Shown here piece after piece: positions 2,130 to 18,896 of a stretch of DNA of 64,000 bases (position 1 is the first letter of the stretch; the number at the start of each line of letters is the position of its first letter). A program made the translations under genes and the position numbers. Source of the DNA: Ptychodera flava (Eukaryota; Hemichordata; Enteropneusta; Ptychoderidae); the NCBI RefSeq assembly GCF_041260155.1, contig NC_091944.1:28152332-28216331 (forward strand). The letters run 5' to 3'. Under the pieces are notes generated by a model. It had not been told where the DNA came from. It searched no databases and saw only the letters and a program-made list of their open reading frames with translations.

Positions 2130-2772
2130 AGTAGTAGGTATATATTCCCAACTGGGACGAATAAGAATTTTTTACACCATTTTATTCATTTATCTAAAGG
2201 GAGCGAAGGAAAAATTAACCATCCATGTAACTAAAGTATGACCCTGACCTATATACGAACTCACGCACGCGCAACAATTTTGGCGCAGCAGTGCATTGTC
2301 CTGAACTAAGCGGGGAAATTCCCTGCTGAGTCAGGTCCTGGACTTGCGCAATGCGCTATGACTCACCCCCACTATCAAAACGGAACGACATTCTATTCTC
2401 TCTCTCATTTGTTAGATAGATTCTGACTGAGCCGTACCAGAGCCGGTCTGCTCTTACAAAGGCAACCCGTACCGGAACAGTTCCGAAGGTGCGGGTCTCG
2501 TTTCTGGATGTGAATTTTATCTGCTGGCTGGTCCCTTTTCACTATGTTGGAGTCGTCGGAACGAGCGGAACCATAGGGATGTTGCGCAATACCCCTATCG
2601 GAACACTGTTGTGCAATACCCCTATCGGGACGTTTCCAGCAGGGGCTTTCCAGGAATTTCGCAATACCGTTCCAGTTGCTTAGTAACTTGTGATGTCATG
2701 TTCAATGTCTGTCATTCTACAGTTTTCAGAAAATTTTCTGTGGAATTTTTTTCTGAACGACTCTAGTTAACT
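2130..2772 (+). repeat. Left terminal inverted repeat of the Polinton
   Basis: This 643-bp stretch is the reverse complement of 18895-19537 with about five differences: single mismatches near 2152, 2306 and 2442, and two compensating one-base homopolymer indels near the inner end. It holds a partial internal repeat at about 2578-2635 in which ATACCCCTATCGG occurs twice. No gene is convincing in it; reading frames on both sides are mirror copies of each other. Confidence 0.95.
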
Positions 2773-2775
2773 TGT

Positions 2776-3837
2776 TCACCCGATAGATAAAATTTTAGTA
2801 ATTTCCTCTGAACTTAAAATATGTCGGAAGACCATTACTTCAAACAAAATGAGTCGTTTCAGATGAATGGTACTGATATCTAAAGTGTTCACTCTTTTAT
2901 CTCTACGTACAAATGTAGTTCCTAAGTCGTTCTCTACTCTATTCCCTCCAACAAAACATTCAATACTCATTTCATTGCGATCTTTATCAATACTTATGAT
3001 AATATCACAAGTTGTTCTGTTATCTGTTTTCATAGCATAATATCCAACCAAATCGTCAAACTCGTCTCCCGTAGCTAACTTTACACATCTAATGAGAACT
3101 GTACCATGTTGAAGTATTTTCATATTATCAGTCATCTGTTGATTTACTGTCTGTAAAGTGAGAACAGCTGCCTCATCACCGACACTTTTAAGACCCAGTT
3201 TCTTTAAAGTTGTGTCCCAAAATAATCTAACTGGAACTCCGCTAGCTGTATACGAGCAATAATTCTCCCCCTCGTTTATCCACCTTCTTAGTGTATTATC
3301 TGCCTTCATTATTGTATTAAGAGGACTAATTTTAAGGTGAATCGGTATACCAAGAAGTGCAATGTATGGATTCGTAGGAGTAAGCCAACTACGAAAATCT
3401 AGCAACTTATATTTGTTAACATTGCTATCGAAATAAATAACATTTGGAGTCCCCGGCAGTTCATCAACTCCACCCGCAATTTCACTACCCAATATATCTA
3501 AGATGTTACGTGGTACATTATAAGGTCTGAATTTCTGACTATCCCCATCCCACGTCAGAGCAAAAGGAGTAGGATCGTTTGAAGCCTTTGTAGCGTCAAT
3601 TACAGTTTCATCAATGTCTGTAAGTTCGGAAAATTCTACAGCATGTTCGTGGGAGGGTGGCACCGAGGCAGAGGCTAAAACGAAATATTTTTCGCGGTCC
3701 TTGTAACGAAGGACGTAATCCTTATTATGATTAGCAGCTATCTTAGTATTATTGTTCACTTTAACATCACTTAGATCTTCAAGCTCAAGATTTTGTACAT
3801 GAATTGTACCTATACCGAAGCCACTTGGATCAGACAT
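2776..3837 (-). CDS. Conserved Polinton protein, candidate virion surface or attachment protein
   Basis: The ATG at 3837, giving MSDPSGFGIG and about 353 residues, is preferred to the longer frame that opens at 3888 with a TTG codon, because a TATA-like motif (3841-3852) lies just before it. No transmembrane helix or catalytic motif is evident. The composition is rich in beta-forming stretches and polar residues, and the last 60 residues (around SIECFVGGNRVEND) look like the end of a beta-sandwich. It is the outermost gene on the left, stopping only 3 bp inside the terminal repeat, and is divergent from the gene at 3891. The reading frame is intact. I do not recognise a named family; a structural or receptor-binding role is inferred only from position and composition. 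Confidence 0.7.
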   Translation of the reverse strand: MSDPSGFGIGTIHVQNLELEDLSDVKVNNNTKIAANHNKDYVLRYKDREKYFVLASASVPPSHEHAVEFSELTDIDETVIDATKASNDPTPFALTWDGDSQKFRPYNVPRNILDILGSEIAGGVDELPGTPNVIYFDSNVNKYKLLDFRSWLTPTNPYIALLGIPIHLKISPLNTIMKADNTLRRWINEGENYCSYTASGVPVRLFWDTTLKKLGLKSVGDEAAVLTLQTVNQQMTDNMKILQHGTVLIRCVKLATGDEFDDLVGYYAMKTDNRTTCDIIISIDKDRNEMSIECFVGGNRVENDLGTTFVRRDKRVNTLDISTIHLKRLILFEVMVFRHILSSEEITKILSIG

Positions 3838-3890
3838 AATTATACTATATACAGTGAAAATTAAAATAATACCTTGTAATATACACAACC
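3838..3890. promoter_or_regulatory. Compact bidirectional promoter
   Basis: Only 53 bp separate two divergent start codons. On the minus strand TATATAGTATAATT precedes the ATG at 3837; on the plus strand AATATACACAACC precedes the ATG at 3891. Similar TATATA-type motifs precede most genes in the element, which supports a shared promoter type. Confidence 0.55.
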
Positions 3891-4304
3891 ATGGCTTCAG
3901 CTATAGGAATGACAGTTCTCGGTGCTGTATTAAATGCAACGGCATTCACAGGAGGAAATATTATCGGACAAAAGCTTTCGGGGAATGGTGACGCTCTTAT
4001 TGAAGAGAAGGTCCGACATGATAAAGCATTAGAAAAATTTGAACATGATCGCAACGTCTGGTCAGAAAAAAGATTACTACAGGCTGACTGGGAAAGAGAA
4101 AATCGGGCAAAGGACGCGCATGCTGCGGCTGAATTAAGAGATACAGATGCAGAAATCTTGGAAGAAGCAGAAGCGGTGCAAAGCCGTTCCGAAGGGGCAG
4201 TTCAATTCTCAGATTATTATCAGCCCAGTCCTGAGCAAAAGAAATATGAGATGATCTATATTGCTGGAGGATTGGTCGTGGGATGGTTTATGTTACACCG
4301 GTAG
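3891..4304 (+). CDS. Conserved small Polinton membrane protein with coiled-coil middle
   Basis: This 137-residue protein has a Gly/Ala-rich hydrophobic N-terminal segment (about residues 1-26), a long charged and probably helical middle (about 35-95, with many Glu, Lys and Arg), then the motif FSDYYQPSPEQKKYE, and a C-terminal transmembrane helix (about 121-135) ending in HR. I recall similar short proteins with a YQPS motif before a terminal hydrophobic helix from Polinton-like loci in cnidarians. Its function is unknown; the layout would suit a minor virion or membrane-active protein, but that is inference. The frame is intact and the stop is followed by copies of a CGGAAC word. Confidence 0.8.
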   Translation: MASAIGMTVLGAVLNATAFTGGNIIGQKLSGNGDALIEEKVRHDKALEKFEHDRNVWSEKRLLQADWERENRAKDAHAAAELRDTDAEILEEAEAVQSRSEGAVQFSDYYQPSPEQKKYEMIYIAGGLVVGWFMLHR

Positions 4305-4330
4305 GATCCCTTCGGAACGCTTCGGAACGA

Positions 4331-4992
4331 CTACAATAATTCAATACAAAAGTCAATTGGAAAGTTATTGAAATTGATCATCTTTCCATTCTGATCTGTT
4401 ATCCAGATACGAATTGAATTCATGTAATCTCCCCCTTTTCTCAATGGTATAGAAATTGCTCCGTCTTTAAAATCGTAAGTAACCTTTTCACTTATTTCTC
4501 TCGTATCCCGGATGGGAAGTATTTGTAAACAGTTCGATACTTTCCCCTGTATGTATTCACCCGAACCAAATGAAACATATTTCCAGTAACATCGACTACA
4601 TCTGAATGAACTATATATTTAGTGACTGTTAAGAAATCCACTCTCTTCGGACTAATAGTACTTTTTATAACTGGGTTGTCCTCAGGTTTATCTGAAAAAC
4701 CAACTACGTTGGCGAAGCTACCTGTGGCATTGAAATAGACTTTAACATCTTCAGCCAGTGTTAGATAAACATGGCCTGACGGTAGATTTTTTTCAAAATT
4801 AATTTTTTGCTTCAACCCGATTGCTTTGTTTAACGTATCAATATTGTAGTTACCCGGACGTATTGATTTTGTTGTCTTATTTTTTGGGTCGTTTCCTTCT
4901 TGATATTTTAGTACATTATTCGCCCTCGTTATGTTATGCCATGAATTGTACAGTCCACACTCTAGCAGTCGTATCTTCGTAAACTGTGCCAT
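4331..4992 (-). pseudogene. Polinton minor capsid protein (penton-like single jelly roll), one frameshift
   Basis: The first frame (4992 to 4492) begins MAQFTKIRLLECGLYNSWHN, a pattern typical of Polinton minor capsid proteins, followed by a VGFSDKPED region and a TKYIVHSDVVDVTGN segment. It stops at 4492-4494. A second frame, one base off, continues from about 4500 to a stop at 4331-4333 and carries the usual C-terminal pattern SIRIWITDQNGKMINF. A single-base indel near 4490-4500 therefore splits a gene of about 220 codons. The protein would form the five-fold vertices of a capsid. The family call rests on recalled sequence pattern, not on a search. Its neighbours are other presumed virion genes. 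Confidence 0.75.
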
Positions 4993-5079
4993 GTCAATGC
5001 TGGGGTTAAAATTAACAGTAACCGGTTCGCCGTTTCACTTACAATCCAAATGATCATCGTTGTACGTTGTATGTATATA

Positions 5080-5310
5080 TTACAAAGTATAAGGTTCTGC
5101 AGGAATAATATTTTTCTGTTCAAGGAGATCTTTGGTCGCAACCGCGGCAGCAGTCGCACCGCCTAATTTTGCCAAGCGAGTTAAATTTGGTCGACTTGGA
5201 TCGCCCACCTCTATTTTCAGAAATTTGCTGGAGATCATAAGATATCCCATCGCAAGTCCTGCGATTACAATACCATCGTACATTGTGTTTACAACTGTTT
5301 TAGTATCCAT
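5080..5310 (-). CDS. Conserved small Polinton membrane protein, 76 aa
   Basis: The protein begins MDTKTVVNTMYDGIVIAGLAMGY, with a hydrophobic helix at about residues 13-27, then LKIEVGDPS, and a second amphipathic or hydrophobic stretch (about 45-62). It ends with a conserved-looking IIPAE segment. A TATATA-like motif lies at about 5324-5330 before the ATG. I recall short proteins of this shape in Polinton-like loci of other invertebrates, always beside structural genes. Function unknown; a role in the virion or in membrane interaction is a guess. The frame is intact. Confidence 0.75.
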   Translation of the reverse strand: MDTKTVVNTMYDGIVIAGLAMGYLMISSKFLKIEVGDPSRPNLTRLAKLGGATAAAVATKDLLEQKNIIPAEPYTL

Positions 5311-5361
5311 GATTGCTGACTAGTATATAAAATAGAAAATAAAAATAAAAAATATGGGGAG

Positions 5362-5886
5362 TTAATCCATCTCATACAATGTAGAGGAGCTGGGTCCCCC
5401 CTCCCCTCCCCTCGGAACCCCTGTCGGAACTGTTCTGGAGGGAGCTGCTACGGGCTCTGTTTTTTTCGCTTTCTGGGGAGGATCTTTCCGGAGGGAACAG
5501 GGGGTATGCCGAGCACGCCCCCAATATAGCCCTAATGCAGTCAATGAAACTCCCACAATTCCTAAAACAAGATAACATTTATTATACCATTTATTATCGC
5601 GTGAGCTATCACACTGTTCTTTCATTGTAGGCGGTAGGTCTATACAGTTTGCTTCAGTCGCTACCGCATCGCTCCTCTCCATTGCTTGGCGTTTCTTCTC
5701 CTTGTTTTGCCTGTTCCATTCCGCTAATCGCCTGCCCGCAGCAACTCTCCCTGGATGCTTCGTCGGTAACGTAATTTTCTCTATGTTGCGCTGTGTCGGT
5801 GGGAAGGTCGTTGTTTCTGTTTGCGGTGTGGGCCCCGTCGTCGTTTCCGTTTGCTGAGTCGGAATCGTTTGCGAAGTTGAATCCAT
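5362..5886 (-). CDS. Polinton protein with a single membrane helix, overlapping the next gene
   Basis: This 174-residue protein has a Thr/Gln/Pro-rich N-terminus (1-40), a basic motif KHPGRVAAGRRLAEWNR (about 43-59) followed by KEKKRQ, one transmembrane helix at about 103-122 (LVLGIVGVSLTALGLYW), and a Pro/Ser/Gly-rich tail ending LYEMD. The basic motif before a helix recurs in Polinton-like proteins I remember, without a known function. The first 233 bp overlap the 3' part of the gene starting at 6526 in another frame, so both frames are read from the same DNA. The start at 5886 is the first ATG of the frame. Confidence 0.7.
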   Translation of the reverse strand: MDSTSQTIPTQQTETTTGPTPQTETTTFPPTQRNIEKITLPTKHPGRVAAGRRLAEWNRQNKEKKRQAMERSDAVATEANCIDLPPTMKEQCDSSRDNKWYNKCYLVLGIVGVSLTALGLYWGRARHTPCSLRKDPPQKAKKTEPVAAPSRTVPTGVPRGGEGGPSSSTLYEMD

Positions 5887-6526
5887 TTATTTCAGGTACT
5901 ATATTAAACCCGATTTTTTTAAAATTTAAATGTTTACCCGTAATTAAACCGGTGGAAATTAGAGCAATCAGGGGCCCCCATGTGTACGCTATCCGTCCTG
6001 ATAATCGTTTTATTTCACTGTTTAGAATAAAATCCTTTTTAAGATCAGTGGCATAGTTATCTCGATCATCGATTGGAACTACCTGACTTATTGCACGGGC
6101 TCCTAGATCTATGAAACTTTGAGTGATGGTATCACTTATAAGAGAACTGTATTTCGCTTCATAGACTTTAAAGACTCGTGTTATGGATTCATCGTTCCAC
6201 CTTTCCACTTCTCTAACTGTAAACTCCTTACCAAAAAATAACTTACTTTGACCACTTGCGATGACACAGAGTATTTTTTCACGTTTCGTCTCTATTATGG
6301 ATCGAGCGTCCGACGCTGCGGTTGGCCCTTCGGAATGCGCTGCCATATTTGCCGCTGCCGATGACTTTATTAAATTCTCCATTGTTTGCAGTATGTTATC
6401 TATTCTTAGTAAAAAATAAAAAATTCGTTTAAACCTGAATCCGAAATAAAGTATTAACATAGTCTGGAATGTTAGTATCGTTCCGATAGGGATTCCGACA
6501 GGGATTCCGGGAAAATTCTCCTCCAT
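5654..6526 (-). CDS. Polinton membrane-anchored protein, 290 aa
   Basis: The N-terminus MEENFPGIPVGIPIG leads into a hydrophobic helix (about residues 16-40). A soluble region of about 60-175 follows, with the well-ordered segment FFGKEFTVREVERWNDES and the acidic/basic helix around RAISQVVPIDDRDNYATDLKKD. A second hydrophobic stretch (about 183-200) may also span the membrane. The last 75 residues are Asn/Asp/Glu-rich and are read from DNA shared with the gene starting at 5886, so this tail may be dispensable or overprinted. The gene is divergent from the one at 6558 across only 31 bp. Function is unknown; the family is not one I can name. Confidence 0.7.
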   Translation of the reverse strand: MEENFPGIPVGIPIGTILTFQTMLILYFGFRFKRIFYFLLRIDNILQTMENLIKSSAAANMAAHSEGPTAASDARSIIETKREKILCVIASGQSKLFFGKEFTVREVERWNDESITRVFKVYEAKYSSLISDTITQSFIDLGARAISQVVPIDDRDNYATDLKKDFILNSEIKRLSGRIAYTWGPLIALISTGLITGKHLNFKKIGFNIVPEINGFNFANDSDSANGNDDGAHTANRNNDLPTDTAQHRENYVTDEASRESCCGQAISGMEQAKQGEETPSNGEERCGSD

Positions 6527-6557
6527 TTAAATCTATATGTATATAGAAACACAAATA
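6527..6557. promoter_or_regulatory. 31-bp bidirectional promoter
   Basis: The whole gap between two divergent ATG codons is 31 bp and contains TATATGTATATAG, which reads as a TATA-like motif on both strands. The plus-strand frame could also open at 6537, but that ATG lies inside the motif, so 6558 is the likelier start. Confidence 0.55.
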
Positions 6558-7802
6558 ATGAGTACAGACCTATTCCCAGTTGCTTTTCAATTGAATAAGA
6601 CGAGCGTACCAACAGTACAGCATGCTGATATTCCTTCCAAACCGAACGGGGGAATAAAACCTATTCTCATGGACTTAGAAATATATGTAACGCCGACAGA
6701 AAAATTTACTTTTCATCCTCGGGATATATTTAAAGATAACGTAATCACTCATCGATCAGCTAAAGAAAGTAATGTCTGGCTGGGCAGCCCACATATGAAA
6801 TATTGGGACCAGCAACTGAATTTCGCCGTATGGTGTAGCACTACTGGTTGTGGTATATCATTCGCCCATCTATTTGATGAGAAATTTCCTCTGCAAATAC
6901 GATCATTCTGCCGTTTCCATGTATACTTTACAATACGTAGGATCCTTCACGAAATGGGCGTTGCACTTCCAGACGATACCCCCACCTTCAAAGCTGGTGA
7001 CAATCCATACAATCTCGTCCAATATGAACTTCTATGTACAGAATTTGGAAATATAAGTCCAACGAAGTCCGACTTTCGATATCGAAAAGGTCAAAATAAG
7101 GGTCTTGGTTATGGTTATGAATATTATACTAATCGTGGGCCCGTTCGACAGCCTGCCGCTGTATACAACGGTCATGACTTTTTCCTCTCCGCCGACGGAG
7201 GCGTTTTCTATACACATACAATTTTTGGAAAGAAAAAACATGTACTGTCCGACAAAGACCGACCACACTACTATTTCTTCCGAAATGATGGATCGGAGGG
7301 ACAATATAATAGTTTCATTCCTCTGAAGGGAGACTCCGGACTAACAAAGGCCGGTCTCGCCCGCCTCAATGAAAGCCTTGAAGCCTATGTATATTGCATA
7401 CTCGGCGCACAAGCAAATATTCGCAGTACCATAGTGGGTGATACTGGCAGTGCAGAGCAAGTCCGAAAAGAATTCGGCGTTCTCCTCGAAGATGAAATTC
7501 GTAATACCGACAAAGTAATCAGTTATAGGCGATATCAAGACACAATAATGAATACTGGTGTCAAACTTGATATGGCAGTTTCGCCAAATTTACTTCTCTT
7601 ACCGTCTGAGATGGTCATTCTTTCGGGCCCGGCGATCTCAGGTTATAATAATGAATTGCAATACGCAACTGAATCTATGTCCTTCGGGGTGAATGGTGAT
7701 ATAAACACGGAAGTTCGAGAAAGTGCTATACATGAGATGGAAGGGGGGGGAGGATCCCGTGAAGTGGCAGGACGAGCCCGGAGGATCACCACCTCACAAT
7801 GA
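6558..7802 (+). CDS. Large conserved Polinton protein of unknown function, 414 aa
   Basis: The frame is intact from MSTDLFPVAF to a Gly-run and basic tail (GGGGSREVAGRARR). The N-terminal half contains DLEIYVTPTEKFTFHPRDIF and QLNFAVWCSTTGCGIS, the latter followed by a basic, aromatic stretch. The middle is Gly/Tyr-rich (GLGYGYEYY). The C-terminal third contains ILSGPAISGYNNELQYA. No transmembrane helix or enzyme motif is seen. It stands directly upstream of the packaging ATPase, in the place and size range of a structural protein. I do not recognise its fold; a second major virion component is a reasonable guess. The start at 6558 is preferred because a TATATAG motif precedes it. Confidence 0.75.
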   Translation: MSTDLFPVAFQLNKTSVPTVQHADIPSKPNGGIKPILMDLEIYVTPTEKFTFHPRDIFKDNVITHRSAKESNVWLGSPHMKYWDQQLNFAVWCSTTGCGISFAHLFDEKFPLQIRSFCRFHVYFTIRRILHEMGVALPDDTPTFKAGDNPYNLVQYELLCTEFGNISPTKSDFRYRKGQNKGLGYGYEYYTNRGPVRQPAAVYNGHDFFLSADGGVFYTHTIFGKKKHVLSDKDRPHYYFFRNDGSEGQYNSFIPLKGDSGLTKAGLARLNESLEAYVYCILGAQANIRSTIVGDTGSAEQVRKEFGVLLEDEIRNTDKVISYRRYQDTIMNTGVKLDMAVSPNLLLLPSEMVILSGPAISGYNNELQYATESMSFGVNGDINTEVRESAIHEMEGGGGSREVAGRARRITTSQ

Positions 7803-7932
7803 CACGACTCGGGGACCCCCGGAACGGGCAGCATCTACGACCGCGCAGACCCTATTCACGAATTCGGCAAAATTGGTTTGTTATCTTTAGCAATATTCAT
7901 TACATTCATGTACAGTATATAGATCCGATCCG

Positions 7933-8538
7933 ATGGCAATGTTCGCAACCCCACCATTCAACATGATTGTAACTGGACCGACAAATTCTGGCAAAACTGA
8001 ATATGTAATGGATCTCCTCACCGGTCCGTACTTAAGGAAATTTGAATATATAGTTTTCATTTGTCCGACATTCATGAACAATACAACGTATAATAAAAGA
8101 TTCATTTTCACGGATGACAACGTATTCGTGTTTCCGGTCGGACTCGATGCTGTAGATGATACACTAGCCTTCGTGCATAAAGAATGGGCTGGCACGAACA
8201 CTTTAATAATCCTCGACGACTGCGCCTCGTCCAAAGATATGAAGAAGCGCAGTGACGTTTTAGTCAAACTTGGTTTCAGCGCAAGACACGACGGATTATC
8301 TGTCTGGGTTCTGACTCAGCAATATACTAGTATTAGTAAACCATTTAGGGAAAACATACAGATGTTAGTACTATTTTACACACCGAGCAAGACAGACAAC
8401 AAAACTATTATTAAAGAATATGGAATGGAGGTGTCAGAACGGGAGGTGGGTTCCCTAATCAGGCAATTGAAAAATACACCATTCAGTAAACTAGTATTTC
8501 ATTTACGGCATCCGTACGACATTCAATTTTTCGTTTAA
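7933..8538 (+). CDS. ATP: A32-like (FtsK/HerA) DNA-packaging ATPase
   Basis: This 201-residue P-loop ATPase has Walker A GPTNSGKT at residues 15-22 and Walker B LIILDDC at about 91-97. A sensor-like VWVLTQQY at about 131-138 follows, then the basic C-terminal region LVFHLRHPYD. The size and motif order fit the Polinton packaging ATPase related to poxvirus A32, which would drive DNA into the capsid. A TATATAG motif lies about 10 bp before the ATG. The frame is intact, unlike those of several neighbours. It lies between the large structural candidate and the integrase. Confidence 0.9.
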   Translation: MAMFATPPFNMIVTGPTNSGKTEYVMDLLTGPYLRKFEYIVFICPTFMNNTTYNKRFIFTDDNVFVFPVGLDAVDDTLAFVHKEWAGTNTLIILDDCASSKDMKKRSDVLVKLGFSARHDGLSVWVLTQQYTSISKPFRENIQMLVLFYTPSKTDNKTIIKEYGMEVSEREVGSLIRQLKNTPFSKLVFHLRHPYDIQFFV

Positions 8539-8591
8539 TAGGGGAAATATAAACATTATTATGTTCAATATAAACAACTGCTAAGCTAATC

Positions 8592-9712
8592 ATGGAAGAC
8601 GACAACACCGAAGGCACTCTTAGAGAATTATATTACAACCCGAAAACTGGTTTTGGAGGTGTACAAAAATTATATGACGCAGCACGCTCAGCGGACTCCA
8701 CGTCACTAAGAAAGAGGTGCAGGAGTGGTTAAAAACTCAGCTAACTTATAATCTACATAAACCGGTACCTCGTACTCGTGGGGGTGGTTCGGGCGGGAGG
8801 CGCGTTTTTGTAACATCGATAGACGCCCAGTGGGAAGCGGATCTTGTGGAATTCCCTCCCCCGTTCGCAAAAGAGAACCGTAACATTCGATACATGCTAA
8901 CAGTAATCGATGTGCTAAGCAAATATGCATGGGCCAGGCCGATACAGTCAAAAACGGCTGATGATACGTTACAGGCGCTACAAGACGTGATTAAGAAATC
9001 TGGGAGAAGGCCCGACAAACTTCAGACAGATGAGGGGCGGGAATTTACAAACCGAAAAATGCAGGGGTGGCTCCAGGAGTCAGGCATTCATTGGTTTCAC
9101 ACCTACAGTGACAAAAAAGCTAGCGTTGTTGAACGTTTTAATCGGACTCTCAAGACGATGATGTGGAAATACTTTACATATAAACAGACACGTTCCTGGC
9201 TCCCCATTCTACCAGAACTTCTCGAGAATTACAACAACACCGTTCATGGAAGTATCAAAATGAAACCCAGGGACGTAACAGAGGACAACGATTGGCAGGC
9301 ATTTTATACACTATTCGGTCCTGAGTTGGCAGCCGGGGGAGTTAACCCTGAATTCAAGCCGGGAGAACGGGTTCGAATTACAAAATACAAGACCACTTTT
9401 AAGAAAGGATATTTACCAAATTGGACAGAGGAGATTTTCGTGGTTTCAAAAGTGGTGTACGCAGCTGGACTAGGAACGCCGCCAGTTTACAAAATAAAAG
9501 ATCTGAATGGAGAGGAAATACTTGGCACTTTCTATTCTGATGAACTTCAGAGCGCCCTTTCGGAACGGGGAGCCGACGAGTTGTACAGAGTAGAACGAAT
9601 TTTGAAGACGAAAAAAATTAGAGGAAAGAAATATTATCTGATAAAATGGCGCGGCTATCCAGAAAGTTTCAATAGTTGGGAGCCAGAGGAAAATGTTATT
9701 AGAACTTCGTAA
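8592..9712 (+). pseudogene. INT: Polinton integrase (DDE, with C-terminal chromodomain), one frameshift
   Basis: The gene begins at the ATG at 8592 (MEDDNTEGTLREL). A one-base shift near 8695-8715 separates the first 40 residues from the rest, which runs open to 9712. Numbering from the GTG codon at 8717, the catalytic acids are D42 (ADLVEF), D105 (QTDEG) and E139 (VVERFNR), with 33 residues between the last two. A chromodomain-like module ends the protein at about 286-326 (YRVERILKTKK, then YLIKWRGYP and SWEPEENV). The enzyme would insert the element and make the 6-bp duplication. Apart from the shift, all key residues are present. Confidence 0.93.
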
Positions 9713-9734
9713 GTTCCTGTGCTGGTACTTGTCA

Positions 9735-9790
9735 AGTACTAACGTAAGTACTACGTAAGTACTACGTAAGTACTACGTAAGTACTAACGC
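9735..9790. repeat. 11-bp tandem repeat at convergent gene ends
   Basis: ACGTAAGTACT is repeated about four times in a row, with variant copies on both sides. It lies between the stop of the integrase (9712) and the stop of the kinase-exonuclease gene (9784-9786), and runs just into the latter. Each unit contains the palindrome AGTACT and the splice-donor-like word GTAAGT. Confidence 0.85.
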
Positions 9791-10948
9791 AAGTATTTAC
9801 GAAAGTTACTCAATAAGTACCATGGAAAAAGTCTTAATTTCTTGAAAGAAGAAAGTGACAGCTTACCATTATTCTTCCAACCACCTGGCCAAGTATTTAT
9901 CATGTACTGTCGTAAGTAATGTTCACTTACTGCATCTTTTTCGGCAGTATGTGGATGAGGTGGTATCTCAGTTCCTGAACATATTAAGTTTGCAAGATCT
10001 TCAAAACGACTTCTCATGTTACCACAGTCCGTTCTTTCGAGTCCCCCTTTTTCAGCTTTATCGATAAGTTCTGGTTGAAGTATAATGTACACAACTGACA
10101 TGAGCCATAGACAAGTAACTTCAAAGTCCCCCCTTTTCATAATGTCAAGTGCTCGTAGGTCAAACGGAGCATTATAAGCACACACAGATTCACAAGCGTT
10201 AAGAAGTTTGTGTAGGTTCTTTAGTGAGACTCGAGGTTGTTCTAGTTGTTCTTGACCAGGTGGGAAGTACGCTTTTTCAAGTTCCTCCTTGCTGAAACCG
10301 TCTATTAAAAATCCCTGGCTGCCGCCGCTCCATGCAATTCCAAAGTCAAAAGCTCGTGGATATTCTACTGGTCCGACTGTCTCGGTATCAATTGTTGGAT
10401 TAAGTATATTATTGAGAACTTCAGGCGTAAGAGCGTTCCGAATTACCAAACATGGAAGCCTGTAGTCGTGGCAAATTTCTAAGAAAGTCTGTTTGAACTT
10501 GTTGTGAATCTCTTCTAGTTCTTTTAAGGCGGCTATTTCGTACGACCTGGCTCGAGTCAACACATTCCGCCTGCAATAATCCCAAGGCATATCTTTGAAT
10601 ATGATAATGAAACTATGTAAATGGTCAAATGCTCTAGAAACAATCTTTTTTTCTTCCGCTGCCACGCCTCGGATTCTAGAAAAAGTCAGATGTTGAATTA
10701 TGAAGAGTCACAAATAATGTAGCGTTCCGAAGGAGGGAGGCCCTCCTCCCAGCCTGACATTGTAAACTAAGCGTATGTTCTATAAACTGGTTCTGAAAAT
10801 CGGCAATCGAAACGTGGCGCCCATTATAAAAGTCGGCAATGTTGCTGGAAAAACTAGTGTCAAATTCTGGTACGTGAGTCTCCGCCAAATTTATTGCATC
10901 GTAACTCTTACCACTTCCAGTTGGTCCATTTATGAATATGTATGACAT
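9784..10948 (-). pseudogene. Deoxynucleoside kinase fused to DEDDh 3'-5' exonuclease, one frameshift
   Basis: Two frames abut. The first (10948 to 10676) starts MSYIFINGPTGSGKS, a P-loop, and continues DFYNGRHVSIADFQ, like the substrate region of deoxynucleoside kinases. It ends at a stop after a run of five T. The second frame overlaps it one base off and runs to 9784. Numbered from its GTG at 10665, it first completes the kinase pattern (TRARSYE at 38-43, like the lid region, then ELEEIHNKF). It then shows a full DnaQ-type exonuclease: IDTETVG (D93, E95), CAYNAPFDL (D169) and HTAEKDA (H239, D244). A single gene for nucleotide supply plus proofreading or trimming is inferred. The exonuclease call is strong and the kinase call moderate. 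No search was run. Confidence 0.72.
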
Positions 10949-11016
10949 TTTGGGATACTATATCATAGAAAAAAATTTTTTTAAATTATTTTTATTAAGA
11001 TATATACGATAAGACA
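10949..11016. promoter_or_regulatory. Bidirectional promoter, 68 bp
   Basis: AT-rich gap between divergent starts at 10948 and 11017. The minus strand carries TATAGTATCCC before its ATG; the plus strand carries AGATATATACGATAAG before its ATG. Confidence 0.5.
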
Positions 11017-11763
11017 ATGACAATCCTTTCTATTTCAACTGCAATAAAAATACTTGAAACCGGAGAAGAGAATATTCAAATCAGTGACGGCAAACTCATA
11101 TTTGAAGAATCTTTGGTAGATCCTTTCATATACGTAGACAGTGAGCTAGAAGTGGTTTTCCCCATCGGACCTAAGTACGGTTCGGGAGGAGATCCAGCTA
11201 CATGTGATGAAATGTGTGTCCGTTGGCAACCGAGTCTTCAAAAGTTTACCGATTTAATAATATTCCGTACCCTAGGTGAAAGTTTCGATGCAAGCACTGC
11301 TAAAAGTTATGCTGCAAGCCTGGCCGCTCACTCCAAGAATACTACTGGATTTTACAATCCATCTAAAGTGTATCAGAAGCGAGGGAGCGAGGCACAGCCA
11401 GTGGCGTATTTTAAATTTCGGTTTAAAAGAGGGAGAAACACTTCCGATTTCGCTACATGTATTGATATGGTTCAAGAAATTGACTGTGCTTTTAAAACAG
11501 TGAGCCCATTGCCAGTCCGAGAAAATCCTGCTATTGTACCTCGAAATATCCGGAAAGGTAGTAAGATAGAATTCTTAGCATTTAAACCGCGCTTAAGTAA
11601 GCGTGGCCTTTCTTTCACTGTTGAGAGGTTATTTTGTGCTGCGCCTAATAAACCAGAAATTCAAGATGCGGAAGAACTAGTCGACTTAGAAAGATTAGGT
11701 GAGATATATAAACAAATAAATGCTGCCAAAAATATTATAGTGGATTTTGATGACCTATCATAG
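11017..11763 (+). CDS. Polinton protein of unknown function beside the polymerase, 248 aa
   Basis: The intact frame begins MTILSISTAIKILETGEE after a TATATA motif. It contains no membrane helix and no nucleotide-binding motif. The middle is basic (FKFRFKRGRNTS, then RNIRKGSKIEF), and the C-terminus is acidic and ends FDDLS. A basic body with an acidic tail ending near an aromatic residue recalls some viral single-stranded DNA-binding proteins. Its place directly upstream of the DNA polymerase, on the same strand with a 50-bp gap, would fit a replication accessory protein. This is inference; I do not recognise the family. Confidence 0.7.
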   Translation: MTILSISTAIKILETGEENIQISDGKLIFEESLVDPFIYVDSELEVVFPIGPKYGSGGDPATCDEMCVRWQPSLQKFTDLIIFRTLGESFDASTAKSYAASLAAHSKNTTGFYNPSKVYQKRGSEAQPVAYFKFRFKRGRNTSDFATCIDMVQEIDCAFKTVSPLPVRENPAIVPRNIRKGSKIEFLAFKPRLSKRGLSFTVERLFCAAPNKPEIQDAEELVDLERLGEIYKQINAAKNIIVDFDDLS

Positions 11764-11813
11764 AATAATTATTTTTCATTTTAAAAATTTTTAGGATAGT
11801 ATATATCATAAAG

Positions 11814-14800
11814 ATGGCCCGTCGATTACATACAGCATTCAAGGGAGCAGTTTTACGAAAAGAATTTCCTGAAGTCAAGCGAGTCGAGGATATCGGGAGC
11901 TGGTGGATATTTAAGGTATGGCCAAAGAAAGAAAGATGTACTCTGTTTATACTGAAATGGAAGTCAAATTATCGGATCCGAAAACTGGTAATACACAAAA
12001 TCGTACATTGCCTGTTAAATTAAAAAATACATACACAAAAGATGTAAGAGGGGCGGATGTGAAACAACAATTAATAGATCGCTACGATCGTATGCTTGAT
12101 ACAATTGAAGCTGTTGAGGGTTCTGGTCTCGTTCTCGAGGAGATACTTAATTTTGAAGTAATTCTAGTAGAAGCTTTACTCGGGGCTGGCGCAGTCCAAT
12201 TTCCCGGATGGTTAAAAAATAAGCATTGTGTGAGCGATCTTATTCTACCGGTGGGGTCGAGAATTGTTTTCAGTATGCCGTCGTAGCAAGTATAAAGTTG
12301 AGCGATGCCGAGTTTCGTGAAAAGAGGGGTGGTCAGGTAAGGAGAAAATGGAATACGTACGCTCCATTTATGGCTGACTACTGTTGGGAAGGTATTCCCT
12401 TTCCTACGCCCGCCGATCTGACTGTGTTCAGGCGCTTCGAGCAGCAAAATCCGGGCACGAAACTTCAAGTGTTTCAGATCTATGAGTCCGATCCAGCCCC
12501 GTCCGACATAACTGTGTTATATAGCGGAGCCGAGGGGGGAGCGGGACCCCCTGACGGAACGGTTCTGGGAGCGGATCGGGTAGCAAATATATTACTGATA
12601 GTTGGTGGGGAGGAAGGAGCCCGGGGTCACTTCGTGCCAATTACTTCGTTAAATCGTCTTCTTAATTCTCATACTAATCGTAAGAATAAGCACAGAAGGA
12701 AGTGTATTTGCCCGGTTTGTAAAAGAGGTTTTAAGTCAACAGAAGAATTAGAAAAACATCAGGTATACTGTGGAACAGACGCCGCCCAGCCAGTTTTTCC
12801 TAAGGAAGTATGTCAATTTGAAGGACATCGGAAGAAGGTTCCTTCTCCCTACGTCGTCTATGCAGATACTGAGGCAATTATTGAGAAGGGGACCGGTCGA
12901 CATATTCCAATTTGTCTTTCGTATGTTATGGTGGAACGGGGGTGGGGGGTTCCTTCGGAACGGCGGCCCACCGTTTATGGTAAAAGAACATTCACAGGTC
13001 TCTCCTGTGTTACAGAATTTCTAAAGGATATGAAAGAACGGGCCGAGTATTATTCGAAATCGTATTATTGGAAAATAATACCGATGAAAGATCCTTCTAA
13101 TTACGACAATCCAGTCTGTATTGCATGTGGAGAGCCGGCAGGATACCGAGTAGTGAAGGAGGGGGCGACTTTTTATTGCGAGGGATGTCGACCGTCGAGA
13201 ACCATTCCTATCTACTTTCACAACCTCAAGGGATACGATGGTTCTTTTATTTTGAAAGAATTACATGAAATCGTTACCGAAGGAGATGGAGGGGGTTCCG
13301 GACCAGAGCCTAAAATCATAGCTAAGACGAGCAATGGAGGAATTATGGGTCTCTCGAAAACATTTATTTTTAGTGCCTCAATTGTTGTTGCCGGAGGGAA
13401 GAGGGAGATAAAGAAACGTTTCTTTTCTATAAAGTTTATGGATAGTGCTCAGTTGATGATGGGGTCGCTCGCGAAGTTGGCAAAAACTGTGCCGGAGGAT
13501 GGGTGGACGGTACCACTTTCGTACCCGGACATTCAAAGGGCGAAAGGTTTCTTCCCCTACGAATATTTAGACTCGGTTGACAGACTAGAAGAGGAGGAGC
13601 TCCCGGAGAGGGGGGAATTTTATAGCGAATTGACGGAAGAGGGGATTTCAGAGGCCGATTACGAACATGCTTTGCGAGTATGGGACGAAGTTGGATGTCG
13701 TACGATTAAAGATTATATGGAATTCTATTGCGAGACTGACGTTCTCCTTCTTGCAAATATATTCGAAAATTTCCGTGACACATGTTTAGAAGCATATAAG
13801 TTAGATCCGGCCCATTACATGTCAGCGCCCGGCTTGACATGGGATGCTATGTTACTTTATACGGGTAATAAATTTGGGCTCATTCAAGATGCTGAGCAGA
13901 TGAATTTCGTACAGAGGGGGATTCGAGGCGGTATCAGCCAGTGTAATATTCATTATTTACAGACAAATCATCCGGCTTACGTCGCCGCCGAGGGGGCTGG
14001 TGAAGCTGGTGGGAATTACGATCCAGAGAAGCCGGTGTCCGAAATAAAATATCTCGATGCAAACAATCTCTACGGCTGGGCAATGAGTCAGGCAATGCCT
14101 ACGGGCGGACTTCATTGGATGACGATGGAAGAGTGGGACGAATGGGAAGAAGGGGGCCGAGGCGGAGCCGGCGGAGCGGGTTCCGGAGGGTGGGGACCTG
14201 GTTCCACCTTTCCACCAAGTTTTCTAGAAGTAGACTTAGAATATCCGGTCGAATTACATGAAGAACACAGCGATTTGCCATTAGCGCCACATCACTATGA
14301 ATTTCCGAGGCAGGGCACTCGACTGATTACAAGTGTGTTGGACAGAGAGAGATACGTCTTACACTACAAGTTGCTGGAATTCTATCTTCGGATGGGAATG
14401 AGATTGAAAAAGATTTATCGGGTGCTTGCTTTCGATGAGAGGGCATGTCTCGCGAAATATATTGACTTTAACACTAAAATGAGGGCAAAGGGAAAGACAG
14501 ATTTCGAAAAGAATTTCTATAAGCTGATGAATAATGCAATGTTCGGTAAGACAATAGAGGATGTTCGAAAGTACAGAGACTTTAAATTTGTTTCGGACTG
14601 GAACGGTACGGATAGTGGCCGTAAAAAGATTCAGAAGTATAATCCAAAGATGAAACATATAACTTTCATAACTTCCGAAGAGGATGGCGATTCCTGCGAC
14701 AGTGCCCTACTGGAACTGAAAACGGATGAGCATAGATATGTAAAACCAGTTTTCATCGGCGCCGCAGTACTGGAACTTTCTAAGCTGCTTATGTATGAGA

Positions 14801-15370
14801 CGCATTACAATTACTTTCGGGTCCAGTTCCCTGGAATACGATTAGCCTAACATGGATACTGACAGTTTTGTTTACAGTGTACCGATCCCGGACCCGGACG
14901 TAACTTTCAATGATATAGTCCGAGAAGATGTTGAAAAGAATGGTGAGAAGTATATATGATACTAGTGGGATGAGTGGGCCGATTTTCTGAAGATTAATAA
15001 AAAAGTGATAGGTAAATTTAAAGATGAGTTGAATGGTGAACCTATTCTTGATTTTGTCGGCATACGCTCGAAAGTGTATGCTTTTCGAACTCCAACTTCC
15101 GAGACGAAAAAAAATAAAGGGGTGAAAGATGTTTGTGTTAGAAAACATTTGAACTTTGAAGACTATAAGGATCTGTTTAAAACTAGGAAGGAGCCCGAGC
15201 AGGCACAATTTGTACAGTTTGTACGGAAAAAGGCTGGAGAAATCCGTAGTGAAAAGCGTAGTAAAATTATGATGGCGCCAAATGATATCAAACGTGTGCA
15301 GTTATACAATCTGAACACGGGCGAATGGCTGGCAGAAACATGGCCGATAGGACTGACGGGTCATGGTTAA
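11814..15370 (+). pseudogene. POLB: Protein-primed family B DNA polymerase, several frameshifts and stops
   Basis: Start ATG at 11814 after TATATATC. The gene passes through four frames: shifts near 11905-11920, near 12240-12260 and at about 14850, then in-frame TGA (14957) and TAG (14963) before an open C-terminus to 15370. In the long frame from 12226, a Cys/His finger (CPVCKRGF, near residue 160) precedes the exonuclease motifs YADTEA (near 211), FHNLKGYDGSF (near 331) and YCETDVLLL (near 500). Polymerase motif A follows (DANNLYGWAM, near 611), then motif B (KNFYKLMNNAMFGKT, near 761). Motif C (MDTDS, at 14852) lies just past the third shift. Gly-rich inserts occur near residues 355 and 640. 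Protein-primed enzymes of this class copy Polintons; this copy cannot make the full product as read. Confidence 0.95.
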
Positions 15371-16631
15371 AATTGTAAAGACTTTAATCTACTATTTTCA
15401 ACAGATACCTGGGCATCGCTAATAACATAAACGTGGGCAAATATATTATCATTGTGAGCGTCATCACCACCCCACGAGGCATCTTTCTTCAGGATCTCAA
15501 GCTGTATTCCGTCCTTTGTGTTCATTACTTTTAAACCATTTCCATGAAATTCAATATCTTTAAAGCTACGCAGATCGATAAATAGACAGAATTTATTCTT
15601 CAAATAATCAACTTCATCTATATCAATTTCACACCAATCTTTATCTTCAGCAAAATACCGTCGCACCTCTCGCCAAAATTGTCTTGGTATCATCTTCTGA
15701 GCGTACACTTTATTTGCAATGCCTTCAATCATTACAGACACAGATTCAATGGAGGGGTTAAAGAAAAGTTCACTGTTCAGTTCTGTCTGATTCTGATTTT
15801 TAGTGAAGAGTATAGCGATACCTCTAATGCTACGTCGTGGTACATTTATATTTTCATTGATAACCGTGTCCGATTCTTTGAATGGGATTGTTCTAAAATA
15901 ATGTATATGCTCGTAAAGGTAACTTTTTCCACCGTTGTAATAAACCAGCCAGTTGACCCCGCGAGTTCGGGGTCAGAAATTGTTTCGTATTCCATTTGAA
16001 TGTTTTTTAATTTATAATTGGTTGTAACAACCTGATTACTGACAAGTAATTGGGAGGCGGGTGCCAACGTAATTTCCCATTCAATATGACTCCCTAACGC
16101 TTCTGGATATGCAACTCCATGGCCTGTTATGAGGGGGTGAGTGAGACGAATAGCATATTTTGTTTTATATGTGTCGAAAAGTAACTTATCGTTCACGACG
16201 GCGGCATCTGCATCGGTCGCACCGCTTCTTAATTTTCTTAGATTTTCGTTCTGAATTCCGTACAGTGTCATGTTCGATCTCTCCTTTTTATGTTTGAAGA
16301 GATCGCGATAACATTCAATGAGATTATATTTATTCAAATTGAAAAGTTGCTGCCCCTCAAATGTGAGAACCATACGCTCCACCAAATTTTTTGCAACATT
16401 TTGTACTACTCGGTTATATTCATCTCCCATTACTTCGAGATCAAAAACCAGGTCGAAAGTGTTAGGAACTAGTACTACTCCGCTTTCTAACTTCGGACAT
16501 CGTATGATAAGTGTCTGGCCTGGATCTGCCTCACTTGGATTATGAGCAACCACATGATGAGTTCTATATGACTTCGTTCCCTTCGGTATTCGGTTGCTGA
16601 AACTCGGTAATAATGATCTATCGTACCCCAT
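15367..16631 (-). pseudogene. MCP: Probable Polinton major capsid protein (double jelly roll), one frameshift
   Basis: The first frame starts MGYDRSLLPSFSNRIPKG at 16631 after a TATATAC motif and runs to 15846. The segments FDLVFDLEVMGDEYN and LTFEGQQLFNLNKYN, with a long strand-rich middle, match the layout of Polinton capsid proteins, including an ECYRDLFK helix. A frame one base off takes over near 15895-15910 and carries NVPRRSIRGIAILF and the rest of the C-terminus to a stop at 15367-15369. Together they span about 420 codons, which fits a double jelly-roll protein. It ends against the polymerase, sharing 4 bp with its 3' end. The capsid assignment rests on pattern and context, not on a structure search. 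Confidence 0.68.
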
Positions 16632-16802
16632 TTTTGTGTAATGTATATAGTAGAAGAAAAAAAAGAAATTACATGTTATAAAGAAAATTAATCACATCTT
16701 AAGTTTCACTTCGTGTATATAATGACTTAGAAGAAAAAATCACATCTTTACGTAAATATTTCCGTCTGCCTGAAAGATAAATCGATTGCCTGTGTCCGCG
16801 AA

Positions 16803-17081
16803 TCAATATTCTTGGAGATGTTGGACTTCCATTTCATCATTGTCAATCTCCTGAAAGACGTTTATGAATTCTAGTCGCTTAAAGAAGTTAGTCTTTTGAC
16901 ATTCTTTAATGAAAGCTAAAATGTTATGATAAAGATTATCATCTTTGAGTCGGACACCTGGATTTGCTCGAAGGATATGGCGATTTACCCGCCGAAGTTT
17001 GCACCATTCCAATTCGACAGAGAAACCAAACAGGTCTTTATTTTTAGAAAGAAACTTTGCAATATTCTTTTCACCAAACAT
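16803..17081 (-). CDS. Small Polinton protein of unknown function, 92 aa
   Basis: The frame begins MFGEKNIAKFLSKNKDLFGF and ends EVQHLQEY, with no membrane segment or clear motif; it is rich in Asn, Lys and Leu and looks helical. A TATATGG motif lies about 20 bp before the ATG, and the start follows the stop of the upstream gene by about 24 bp. The 170 bp between it and the capsid gene start hold no other frame I can support. It may be a remnant of a longer gene, for example the protease that is otherwise missing, but I see no Cys-His catalytic pattern. Confidence 0.5.
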   Translation of the reverse strand: MFGEKNIAKFLSKNKDLFGFSVELEWCKLRRVNRHILRANPGVRLKDDNLYHNILAFIKECQKTNFFKRLEFINVFQEIDNDEMEVQHLQEY

Positions 17082-17104
17082 GCCGATTCCGTAGGGGCCA
17101 TATA

Positions 17105-18391
17105 TTAGTACATAATTTTATTTATAATGACTAATGTTAAACCAGTTAAAAATATCCATAGCTGTTCTCCAACAAATCCGACAACCGATCCTGCTGTTTT
17201 TAATAGAAAACTGACAAGGGAGCCGATTAAACCTGGTATTGCAGCAGCACTTTTTGCGGCCAATGTTTTTAACCATTCGCCAAATTGCTTTACAATTTCT
17301 TTCGCTTTTGTATATACTTTGGGCGGACCTGAACCACCTGTGTTTGCTCCAGTTCCTGCTCCCCCTCCCCCTCCTCCTCTAGTCACAGCCAGGGCAATTG
17401 TTGATATTGTCATTCCAAGGGCAGTCAGTATTGCAGCGATTGTAATACCATTTCGTTTAAATAACTCTGTCAGCTTCAGCCTGAGTGACAATTCTGGATC
17501 AGAAATTACATCACGAAGAGACCTAGTCGTAGCCAGACTTTCACGTGCCCCGCTAATCTTACCATTTTCGTATTCAATTCGATTGTCAATTTTAGCTTCT
17601 CTTGTTATGAGTTCAGCTAGTAGTTTCTCGGCTTTTTCTTTTGCTTGGGTGTGTTCTACAGGAATTTCCTCTAACTGTTTTTCAACTTCTCTTTTCTCTA
17701 GCCTTATTTTAACTTTTTCATTGTTAAGGTTGCTAATACGCATATTCGCAATCTTAATTCATCATTAATAGCTCTATATTCTGGGTTTAGATTGTTCCAT
17801 TGTTCGATTTTATTTTCAAAAGCTTGTATTTTATCTGCATTACCAGAAGCATCTTGCCGTAAGAATGTCAGTTCATCTTTGTATACACCCATGTCTTCTG
17901 GCGTCATCTTCTCAGCCGGTATTTTATTGTTTTTCACATCTTCAGAATACAATGTAGAACTTACAAATTCGGGCTCTGCGATATCCTCCGTCTTACTGTA
18001 TACTTTAGTTACAAATTCATATCCTCCCGCTTCTTTTTTACTGTCTTGAGCAATTTAAATCCACATCCTGTATTTTTGATAGCCTGAGGTTTTTATAATA
18101 CAGCTTTCCATCCCTAATCTTTGCATTCAAAATTAATTCGTTTCGTGCTGCTTCATCAGTAATATTATTTTCATCTAAGAATTGTTCAGCCATTAGTATT
18201 TCAATTGTTACTCTATATCTAGTCGAAGGATCTACCTGCGGGCTCCGCGCGCTTGAGCTAGCCTGGTAAGAATCGGCTTCTGCAAGGGCATTATCATCGT
18301 CTATAAAGTATGTTTCAGCAGTAGCGTCATCATCATTTAAATTTGCATCATCGAAATCCTGGAGTGGTATATCTTCTCCTCCTTCTGCCAT
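17105..18391 (-). pseudogene. Conserved Polinton membrane protein of about 429 codons, two frameshifts
   Basis: Three overlapping frames form one gene: MAEGGEDIPLQDFDD from 18391 to about 18050, a middle part from about 18045 to 17704, and a C-terminal part from about 17743 to 17105. One-base shifts lie near 18045-18060 and 17704-17745. The N-terminus is acidic. The middle is a long coiled coil. The C-terminus has a hydrophobic helix (ITIAAILTALGMTISTIALA), a Gly-run linker, an amphipathic segment and two further hydrophobic helices (IPGLIGSLVSFLL and a final one ending NKIMY). I remember closely similar C-termini from Polinton-like loci in corals, of unknown function. The layout suits a virion membrane or membrane-remodelling protein, which is inference. 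Confidence 0.7.
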
Positions 18392-18449
18392 ATTGTATTT
18401 CTATATTACTACAATTATTTTTTATCATCCCTTACATATACAGTAAAAA
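18392..18449. promoter_or_regulatory. Bidirectional promoter, 58 bp
   Basis: AT-rich gap between divergent starts at 18391 and 18450. TAATATAGAAAT precedes the minus-strand ATG and ACATATACAGT the plus-strand ATG, as at other divergent gene pairs in this element. Confidence 0.5.
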
Positions 18450-18896
18450 ATGCACATCTCAGTTGTTGAAAGCGTTGAACAATTGGCTGATTATATCGAA
18501 AGAACAAGTGCTGCATATCGACGAAGTTATAAATTAATGGGACGAATTGATATGGCTCTTAATATTACTAAAGGAATTCTTGTAAGCTCTGCTGTAATAG
18601 CGGCAATTCCTACAGTTCCGGTACTCATAGCTTTGACGCCTGTACCAGGTGTTATTATTGATGTAATACAAGGAAAAACTGGAGTATCAAAAAGAAGAGA
18701 GAAGTATAAACATTATTATGTGCAATATAAGCAGTTGTTTACTCAAATACAAGAAAAAGGTGCAACAACAGAAAACGAGTCAGAACTTATTCAGAACATA
18801 TTCAAACAGGCACTAGAAATACAAAAACAAGAAGGATTTAGTCCTCCTCTGGAAAGATACCTAAGACATTATGGATTGAATGGATATGAAAGTTAG
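18450..18896 (+). CDS. Conserved small Polinton membrane protein, 148 aa
   Basis: The N-terminal 40 residues are helical (VEQLADYIERTSAAYRRSYK). Two hydrophobic stretches follow at about residues 43-58 (ILVSSAVIAAIPTVPV) and 60-75, which could form a membrane hairpin. The C-terminal 70 residues are charged with YYVQYKQLFTQIQEK. I recall a similar small hairpin protein at the end of other Polinton-like elements; its function is unknown. The frame is intact, and its stop codon lies at the inner edge of the right terminal repeat, overlapping it by 2 bp. Confidence 0.75.
   Translation: MHISVVESVEQLADYIERTSAAYRRSYKLMGRIDMALNITKGILVSSAVIAAIPTVPVLIALTPVPGVIIDVIQGKTGVSKRREKYKHYYVQYKQLFTQIQEKGATTENESELIQNIFKQALEIQKQEGFSPPLERYLRHYGLNGYES

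What the first reader, a model, noticed from the sequence alone, without database searches (positions are those of the whole stretch)
9784..10948. Deoxynucleoside kinase-exonuclease fusion carried by a Polinton
Seen: a P-loop (GPTGSGKS) with kinase-like substrate and lid patterns, then complete ExoI, ExoII and ExoIII motifs of the DEDDh type (IDTETVG, NAPFDL, HTAEKDA), across two frames that overlap by one shift. Known: Polinton core genes do not normally include either enzyme. Inference: one gene combined dNTP supply with 3'-5' exonuclease activity for the element's own replication. The frames meet at a T-run, so a programmed shift is also conceivable.
Basis: partly seen in the sequence, partly recalled or inferred. 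Interest (0 to 1): 0.88.

Follow-up and report, generated by a model that had tools for sequence, protein, structure and literature searches.

The report
Polinton gene fusing kinase and exonuclease
A virus-like mobile element in an animal-type genome carries one gene that joins a nucleoside-kinase-like enzyme to a DNA-trimming exonuclease; the copy here is broken, but intact single-frame relatives show that the fusion is real.

Summary
The observation mostly holds. The gene (10948→9784, minus strand) lies inside a well-bounded Polinton (2130-19537; 643-bp inverted repeats; 6-bp target-site duplication). Three stretches of the window copy, searched apart, match collinear parts of three database proteins (P0001-P0003; 380-392 aa; 50-65% identity) that hold both halves in one open frame, so the fusion is real. 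The N-terminal half is a P-loop kinase of the nucleoside/nucleotide-kinase kind: Pfam dNK is hit by 3 of 3 relatives, always below its cut-off; the substrate is undecided. The C-terminal half is a divergent DEDDh-type exonuclease: catalytic residues invariant in 7 of 7 sequences, linked through one database protein to phage exonucleases, but not to Pfam RNase_T. The junction reading is wrong: the frame changes twice at about 10,700-10,750, before the T-run, so no programmed shift. The polymerase and a capsid-like gene also seem to change frame; this copy is decayed or misassembled. The polymerase keeps exonuclease motifs, so the extra exonuclease does not replace proofreading. Most likely an accessory DNA-precursor/DNA-processing enzyme. 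The papers searched showed no report of it. A new architecture in a known kind of element.

The parts
2130..19537 (.). whole Polinton (17,408 bp)
   Evidence: 643-bp terminal inverted repeats, 98% complementary, 99.2% identical; ends AGTAGT/ACTACT and identical 6-bp flanks CTCCCA
2130..2772 (+). left terminal inverted repeat
18895..19537 (-). right terminal inverted repeat
10748..10948 (-). kinase half, first stretch (P-loop to the FQNQFIEHTLSLQ helix)
   Evidence: 54-65% identical to residues 1-64 of P0001-P0003, BLASTP E 5e-19 to 1e-27
10700..10750 (-). stretch in which the reading frame changes twice; the conserved DSS motif appears in a third frame
   Evidence: stretch approximate
10407..10707 (-). 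kinase half, second stretch (IIQHLTFSR to the lid CRRNVLTRARSYE and the LxxIHxKF helix)
   Evidence: 58-62% identical to P0001-P0003
9787..10404 (-). DEDDh-type exonuclease half; ExoI DTE, ExoII YNAPFD, ExoIII HTAEKDA
   Evidence: 50-59% identical to P0001-P0003; catalytic residues invariant in 7 of 7 sequences
8717..9712 (+). integrase (rve core plus chromodomain), convergent neighbour
   Evidence: Pfam rve 2.6e-15, Chromo 6.2e-13
7933..8538 (+). A32-type packaging ATPase
   Evidence: Pfam Pox_A32 1.2e-14
12226..15370 (+). family-B DNA polymerase with its own exonuclease motifs; a DTD motif lies in another frame after about 14850
   Evidence: Pfam DNA_pol_B_2 2.9e-24 on 12226-14847; DTE and HNLKGYD motifs and plain frames
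15367..16631 (-). capsid-like protein (inferred), apparently in two frames
   Evidence: weak Pfam Capsid_N, E 0.078, on 15849-16631; frames; that the two frames are one gene is inferred
11017..11763 (+). divergent neighbour ORF of unknown function (248 aa)
   Evidence: no Pfam family over cut-off
9734..9795 (.). 11-bp tandem repeat between the convergent integrase and exonuclease ends

Best explanation
An accessory gene of a Polinton lineage that encodes one two-domain protein: an N-terminal P-loop kinase of the dNK/nucleotide-kinase kind and a C-terminal DEDDh 3'-5' exonuclease. Shown: the fusion, the conserved catalytic motifs, the place inside a bounded Polinton, the broken frame in this copy. 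Inferred: the kinase phosphorylates deoxynucleosides or deoxynucleotides, so that the element can replicate in cells with low dNTP pools. The exonuclease trims or degrades DNA 3' ends as a processing or recycling activity, in addition to the exonuclease domain that the element's own polymerase keeps.
For: Collinear single-frame relatives P0001-P0003. The two halves are about equally conserved between relatives: kinase 52 and 59%, exonuclease 50 and 52%, each to P0003. Kinase: Pfam dNK E 1.9e-4, 0.023 and 2e-5 in P0001, P0002 and P0003, each over profile positions 1-169 of 203; AAA_28 30.2 bits, over the cut-off of 27, in P0003; PHROG 'thymidylate kinase' 0.0048, 0.011 and 4.5e-7 in the same three; among solved structures 15 of 23 chains listed for the kinase half are NDUFA10, including the 14 best (best E 0.0012, mostly over the lid region), which I recall as a dNK-family protein. 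Exonuclease: the profile matches P0008 (hhalign 6.2e-9; 30.9 bits against 6.4 for the best of 1000 shuffles); P0008 matches an Enterococcus phage protein annotated exodeoxyribonuclease (E 6e-25) and PHROG 'DNA polymerase exonuclease subunit' (0.0019); catalytic D, E, N, D, H and D invariant across the 7 rows of an alignment that includes both.
Against: Exonuclease: no Pfam RNase_T match in 0 of 7 halves (that is, none of 7); no exonuclease among PDB chains; no useful profile match to 30 bacterial RNase_T-family sequences; P0008 itself scored only E 0.066 in the database search; P0008 and the phage protein also lack any Pfam family, and 7 of the 10 matching phage records call the gene hypothetical and 2 have no annotation. 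Kinase: dNK below cut-off in 3 of 3 relatives; against bacterial family sets hhalign put AAA_33 (93%, 112 columns) and AAA_28 (89%, 114 columns) above dNK (82%, only 19 columns round the P-loop), and the dNK model built here gave 6.7 bits at best against 6.5 for a shuffle. The kinase has DSS where dNKs have ERS (ERS is recalled). P0004 has lost the P-loop but kept the exonuclease residues, so the two activities are not strictly coupled. Only the window copy shows a Polinton setting; I could not see the DNA around P0001-P0004.
Confidence: 0.6

Rival explanations
1. DNA-salvage enzyme: the exonuclease frees dNMPs from host or waste DNA and the fused kinase acts on dNMPs (a thymidylate/dNMP kinase), so that both steps form one recycling path.
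For: The PHROG name for the kinase half is thymidylate kinase; a DEDDh exonuclease releases dNMPs (established knowledge); both halves kept at similar identity.
Against: Pfam Thymidylate_kin is not among the families listed for P0001-P0003 at E 10, and the bacterial thymidylate-kinase set gave only 18% in hhalign. P0004 keeps the exonuclease without the P-loop.
Confidence: 0.25
2. Defence-evasion nuclease: the exonuclease removes stray DNA or small RNA that would alert the host, as TREX1-type or ERI1-type DEDDh enzymes do (recalled), and the kinase half is secondary.
For: The exonuclease is kept where the kinase decays (P0004); the polymerase already has exonuclease motifs.
Against: No TREX1 or ERI1 chain came up in the sequence search of solved structures; the only homology link found is to phage proteins, one of them annotated exodeoxyribonuclease.
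Confidence: 0.1
3. End-processing enzyme: the kinase is a polynucleotide 5'-kinase (AAA_33 kind) and the exonuclease trims 3' ends, to repair or tidy linear DNA ends.
For: AAA_33 E 3.8e-4 in P0003 and the best hhalign score among four kinase sets.
Against: AAA_33 was listed for only 1 of 3 relatives, against dNK in 3 of 3; the order of lid and nucleoside-site motifs looks like dNK (my reading). Polinton polymerases are predicted to carry a terminal-protein domain that primes replication at the ends (PMC11071308, passages).
Confidence: 0.1
4. Two separate genes joined by a programmed frameshift at the T-run.
For: The first open frame ends close to a T-run.
Against: Conserved protein sequence is read in the downstream frame from before the T-run, and in a third frame before that. 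Relatives are one frame. Other genes of this copy also seem to change frame.
Confidence: 0.01

Closest known systems
Polinton/Maverick elements
   Same: Terminal inverted repeats, 6-bp target-site duplication, AGTAGT/ACTACT ends (the commonest vertebrate Maverick end motif in PMC8097293, passage), rve integrase, A32-type ATPase, family-B polymerase
   Different: Carries a kinase-exonuclease fusion; the genes named in the passages that I saw did not include one
Deoxynucleoside kinase family (Pfam PF01712) and AAA_28 (PF13521)
   Same: P-loop, order of motifs, arginine-rich lid; dNK scores below cut-off, AAA_28 over cut-off in 1 of 3
   Different: DSS in place of ERS (recalled); below the dNK cut-off; fused to an exonuclease
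Phage DEDDh-type exonucleases (Enterococcus phage H1 exodeoxyribonuclease; P0008 and its family PHROG 20187)
   Same: Catalytic residues and spacing; profile link through P0008
   Different: A stand-alone gene in the one phage locus read; the Polinton form has a kinase in front and a conserved PWYLxNN-like C-terminus
Thymidine-kinase-like genes of bidnavirus segments (PMC11071296, passage)
   Same: A small animal DNA virus with a nucleoside-kinase-like gene
   Different: The passage mentions no exonuclease; the word occurs 0 times in that main text

Membership tests
Polinton/Maverick | terminal inverted repeats and 6-bp target-site duplication | tested here: met
   643-bp TIR at 98-99% identity, CTCCCA on both sides
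Polinton/Maverick | family-B polymerase, rve integrase, A32-type ATPase | tested here: met
Polinton/Maverick | double jelly-roll capsid proteins and Ulp1/adenain protease | tested here: inconclusive
Deoxynucleoside kinase (PF01712) | score over the family's curated cut-off | tested here: not met
   21.7, 14.9 and 24.9 bits against 27 in P0001-P0003
Deoxynucleoside kinase (PF01712) | P-loop and arginine-rich lid in order | tested here: met
   3 of 3 full-span relatives and the two window stretches
Deoxynucleoside kinase (PF01712) | ERS catalytic motif (recalled) | tested here: not met
   DSS in P0001-P0003
Deoxynucleoside kinase (PF01712) | phosphorylates deoxynucleosides | not testable with these tools
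   needs an assay
DEDDh exonuclease | D.E, NxxxD and HxAxxD residues at family spacing | tested here: met
   7 of 7 sequences; 15 of 200,000 shuffles
DEDDh exonuclease | match to the RNase_T family (PF00929) | tested here: not met
   0 of 7 at E 10 or better
DEDDh exonuclease | homology to an annotated exonuclease | tested here: met
   indirect, through P0008 to a phage gene annotated exodeoxyribonuclease by its depositors; that phage protein has no Pfam match itself
Programmed frameshift | frames join at the slippery site in relatives | tested here: not met
   relatives are in one frame; window frames change elsewhere

The most novel reading that the evidence does not exclude
A lineage of animal Polintons evolved a self-contained DNA-recycling enzyme, an exonuclease feeding dNMPs to a fused kinase, built partly from a phage-type exonuclease, and used it to replicate in cells that do not make DNA.
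Probability: 0.2. Interest if true: 0.7.

Novelty: new variant of a known kind. Interest (0 to 1): 0.5.

Why it matters
Polintons are discussed as ancestors or relatives of adenoviruses and virophages (PMC11071308, passages) and, in one hypothesis, of giant viruses (PMC10328495, abstract start in the listing). A nucleotide-metabolism enzyme in one suggests that small elements too may manage their own DNA precursors, a trait usually tied to large DNA viruses (recalled). In three searches of a library of about 5.8 billion proteins the fusion came up only in its own small family (these score only candidates that share short words, 757, 8000 and 1103 of them), so it may serve as a marker for this lineage, and it is an enzyme that can be assayed directly.

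Tried and rejected
Programmed shift at the T-run: rejected. Replacement proofreading for a polymerase that lacks an exonuclease: considered, because PMC11071308 (passages) describes loss of that domain in some relatives; rejected, because ExoI- and ExoII-like motifs were found by script and an ExoIII-like YCETD is seen by eye in the translation. Related Polintons in viral contigs: 6 scans with window proteins or the alignments A2 and A4 and one with P0008 confirmed none; scans with a single protein reach close relatives only. Bacterial and archaeal genome contigs: none confirmed with A2. Phage records: no match to P0003 at E 1. Profile comparison with bacterial family sets did not decide the kinase's family. 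For those sets I used all 30 dNK, 20 thymidylate-kinase and 30 RNase_T loci returned, but only 12 of 25 AAA_28 and 18 of 25 AAA_33 loci (17 kept after a length filter); the protein at each locus was picked by a motif pattern, not checked against the family model. A first run read one strand only and was redone. Exonuclease against PDB: 12 of 12 rows are ribosomal protein S10, taken as chance. In one search two of the seven exonuclease rows were hidden by duplicate names; one search repeated the motif check on all 7.

Literature. Searches. One search (polinton with deoxynucleoside kinase) listed one paper, on algal viruses, not opened; searches listed none; (polinton with exonuclease) listed 30 of 30, of which I opened 4; one search listed 30 of 296, 15 of 29, 20 of 138, so those are partial. 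11 papers were opened by term search only: in 8 I saw passages; in 3 the terms did not occur at all; no whole text was read. In one search the word kinase was not among the terms. None of what I saw describes a kinase-exonuclease fusion in a Polinton.

Full report
What is there. On the minus strand, 10948 to 9784, an open frame with a P-loop (MSYIFINGPTGSGKS...) is followed in another frame by a kinase-like lid (CRRNVLTRARSYE) and three exonuclease motifs, DTETVG, YNAPFD and HTAEKDA. The exonuclease motif set at DEDDh-like spacing occurs in 1 of 75 long frames of the window, this one, and in 15 of 200,000 shuffles of its sequence.

Setting. The gene lies between a chromodomain integrase (8717-9712) and a family-B polymerase (from 12226), near an A32-type ATPase (7933-8538). 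The element is bounded by 643-bp inverted repeats, 2130-2772 and 18895-19537, 98% complementary by one tool and 99.2% identical by BLASTN. It starts AGTAGT, ends ACTACT, and is flanked on both sides by CTCCCA. That is a 17,408-bp Polinton with an intact insertion scar. No whole genome is held for the window. The nearest named hint is a Ptychodera flava (acorn worm) gene model, P0005, that contains 32 residues at 88% identity to the exonuclease, so a hemichordate or close relative is a fair guess but not shown.

The fusion is real. A search with the exonuclease piece returned five proteins: P0001, P0002 and P0003 (380, 381 and 392 aa, both halves in one frame), P0004 (349 aa) and the Ptychodera fragment P0005. 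A profile search added P0006 and P0007, which lack the kinase N-terminus; whether their contigs are cut there could not be seen. Three pieces of the window gene, compared apart, match collinear parts of P0001-P0003: 54-65%, 58-62% and 50-59% identity. Between relatives the kinase half (52 and 59%) and the exonuclease half (50 and 52%) are conserved to a similar degree.

The junction. Aligned to the single-frame relatives, the window copy reads IIQHLTFSRIRG in the downstream frame, from before the T-run and across it, and the conserved DSS motif in a third frame before that. The frame thus changes twice within about 10,700-10,750. The polymerase seems to change frame too (a DTD motif lies in another frame after about 14850), and so does a capsid-like gene (two open frames overlap at about 15,850-15,970); for these two the break is inferred from motifs and open frames, not from an alignment to relatives. 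With inverted repeats 98-99% identical, either the copy decayed recently or the assembly has indel errors; the tools cannot tell which. A programmed shift is not needed and does not fit.

The kinase half. Pfam dNK is hit by 3 of 3 full-span relatives over profile positions 1-169 of 203 (E 1.9e-4, 0.023 and 2e-5) but below the curated cut-off; AAA_28 passes its cut-off in 1 of 3. PHROG 'thymidylate kinase' gives 4.5e-7 at best. In the PDB the kinase profile lists 23 chains at E 10 or better; 15 are NDUFA10, including the 14 best (best E 0.0012, mainly over the lid region), the other 8 look like chance. NDUFA10 is recalled as a dNK-family protein. Results against a firm dNK label: against bacterial family sets, hhalign gave AAA_33 93% and AAA_28 89% over 112-114 columns, dNK 82% over only 19 columns round the P-loop, and thymidylate kinase 18%. 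Models built from the same sets gave 22.5 bits for AAA_28 and 12.3 for AAA_33 in P0003's kinase half, but for dNK 6.7 bits at best against 6.5 for the best of 1000 shuffles. I call it a P-loop kinase of the nucleoside/nucleotide-kinase kind with dNK-like motif order, substrate unknown.

The exonuclease half. 0 of 7 halves match Pfam RNase_T, and no exonuclease came up in the PDB by sequence. The profile finds P0008 at E 0.066 in the database search; compared directly the match is clear (hhalign E 6.2e-9; 30.9 bits against 6.4 for the best of 1000 shuffles). P0008 matches 10 phage records: 1 annotated exodeoxyribonuclease, 7 hypothetical, 2 without annotation. It also matches PHROG 20187 (unknown function, 1e-28) and PHROG 192 'DNA polymerase exonuclease subunit' at 0.0019. 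Neither P0008 nor the annotated phage protein has a Pfam match, and the phage protein finds no exonuclease in the PDB. The catalytic D, E, N, D, H and D are invariant in the 7-row alignment that includes both. Direct hints are weak but agree: PHROG 17 (DNA polymerase) 7e-4 for the window piece and NCBIfam DNA polymerase III epsilon 0.0064 for P0001, far below that model's cut-off.

How it may work. The element's own polymerase keeps exonuclease motifs, so the extra exonuclease is not a stand-in for proofreading. P0004 lacks the P-loop, DSS and lid patterns but keeps all three exonuclease motifs, so the exonuclease can be useful without the kinase. I favour an accessory enzyme that supplies DNA precursors and processes or recycles DNA ends (0.6). 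The recycling version, with a dNMP kinase fed by the exonuclease, is the more interesting form (0.25 as a rival). All functional steps are inference.

Novelty. In 10 virus or element papers opened by term search, the passages shown mention neither a nucleoside kinase nor a separate exonuclease as a Polinton gene; targeted searches found no report (lists partly capped, as told under Tried and rejected). This is an absence in those searches only. I rate it a new domain architecture in a known kind of element.

Noticed in passing
138-1164 and 19744-20490: A second, weaker set of inverted-repeat arms (87-100% identity in pieces) flanks the Polinton on both sides; the Polinton may have inserted into another inverted-repeat element.
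   Followed up: partly
12226-15370 and 15367-16631: The polymerase and a capsid-like gene of the same element also seem to change frame although the inverted repeats are 98-99% identical.
   Followed up: partly
9734-9795: An 11-bp tandem repeat (AAGTACTACGT, 5.5 copies) sits in the convergent gap and overlaps the end of the exonuclease frame.
   Followed up: no
61213-62286: A 146-bp tandem repeat array, about 6 to 7 copies.
   Followed up: no
P0005 (Ptychodera flava gene model, not in the window): An acorn-worm gene model joins a fragment of this exonuclease to a trypsin domain; probably a gene-prediction artefact over an element remnant.
   Followed up: no
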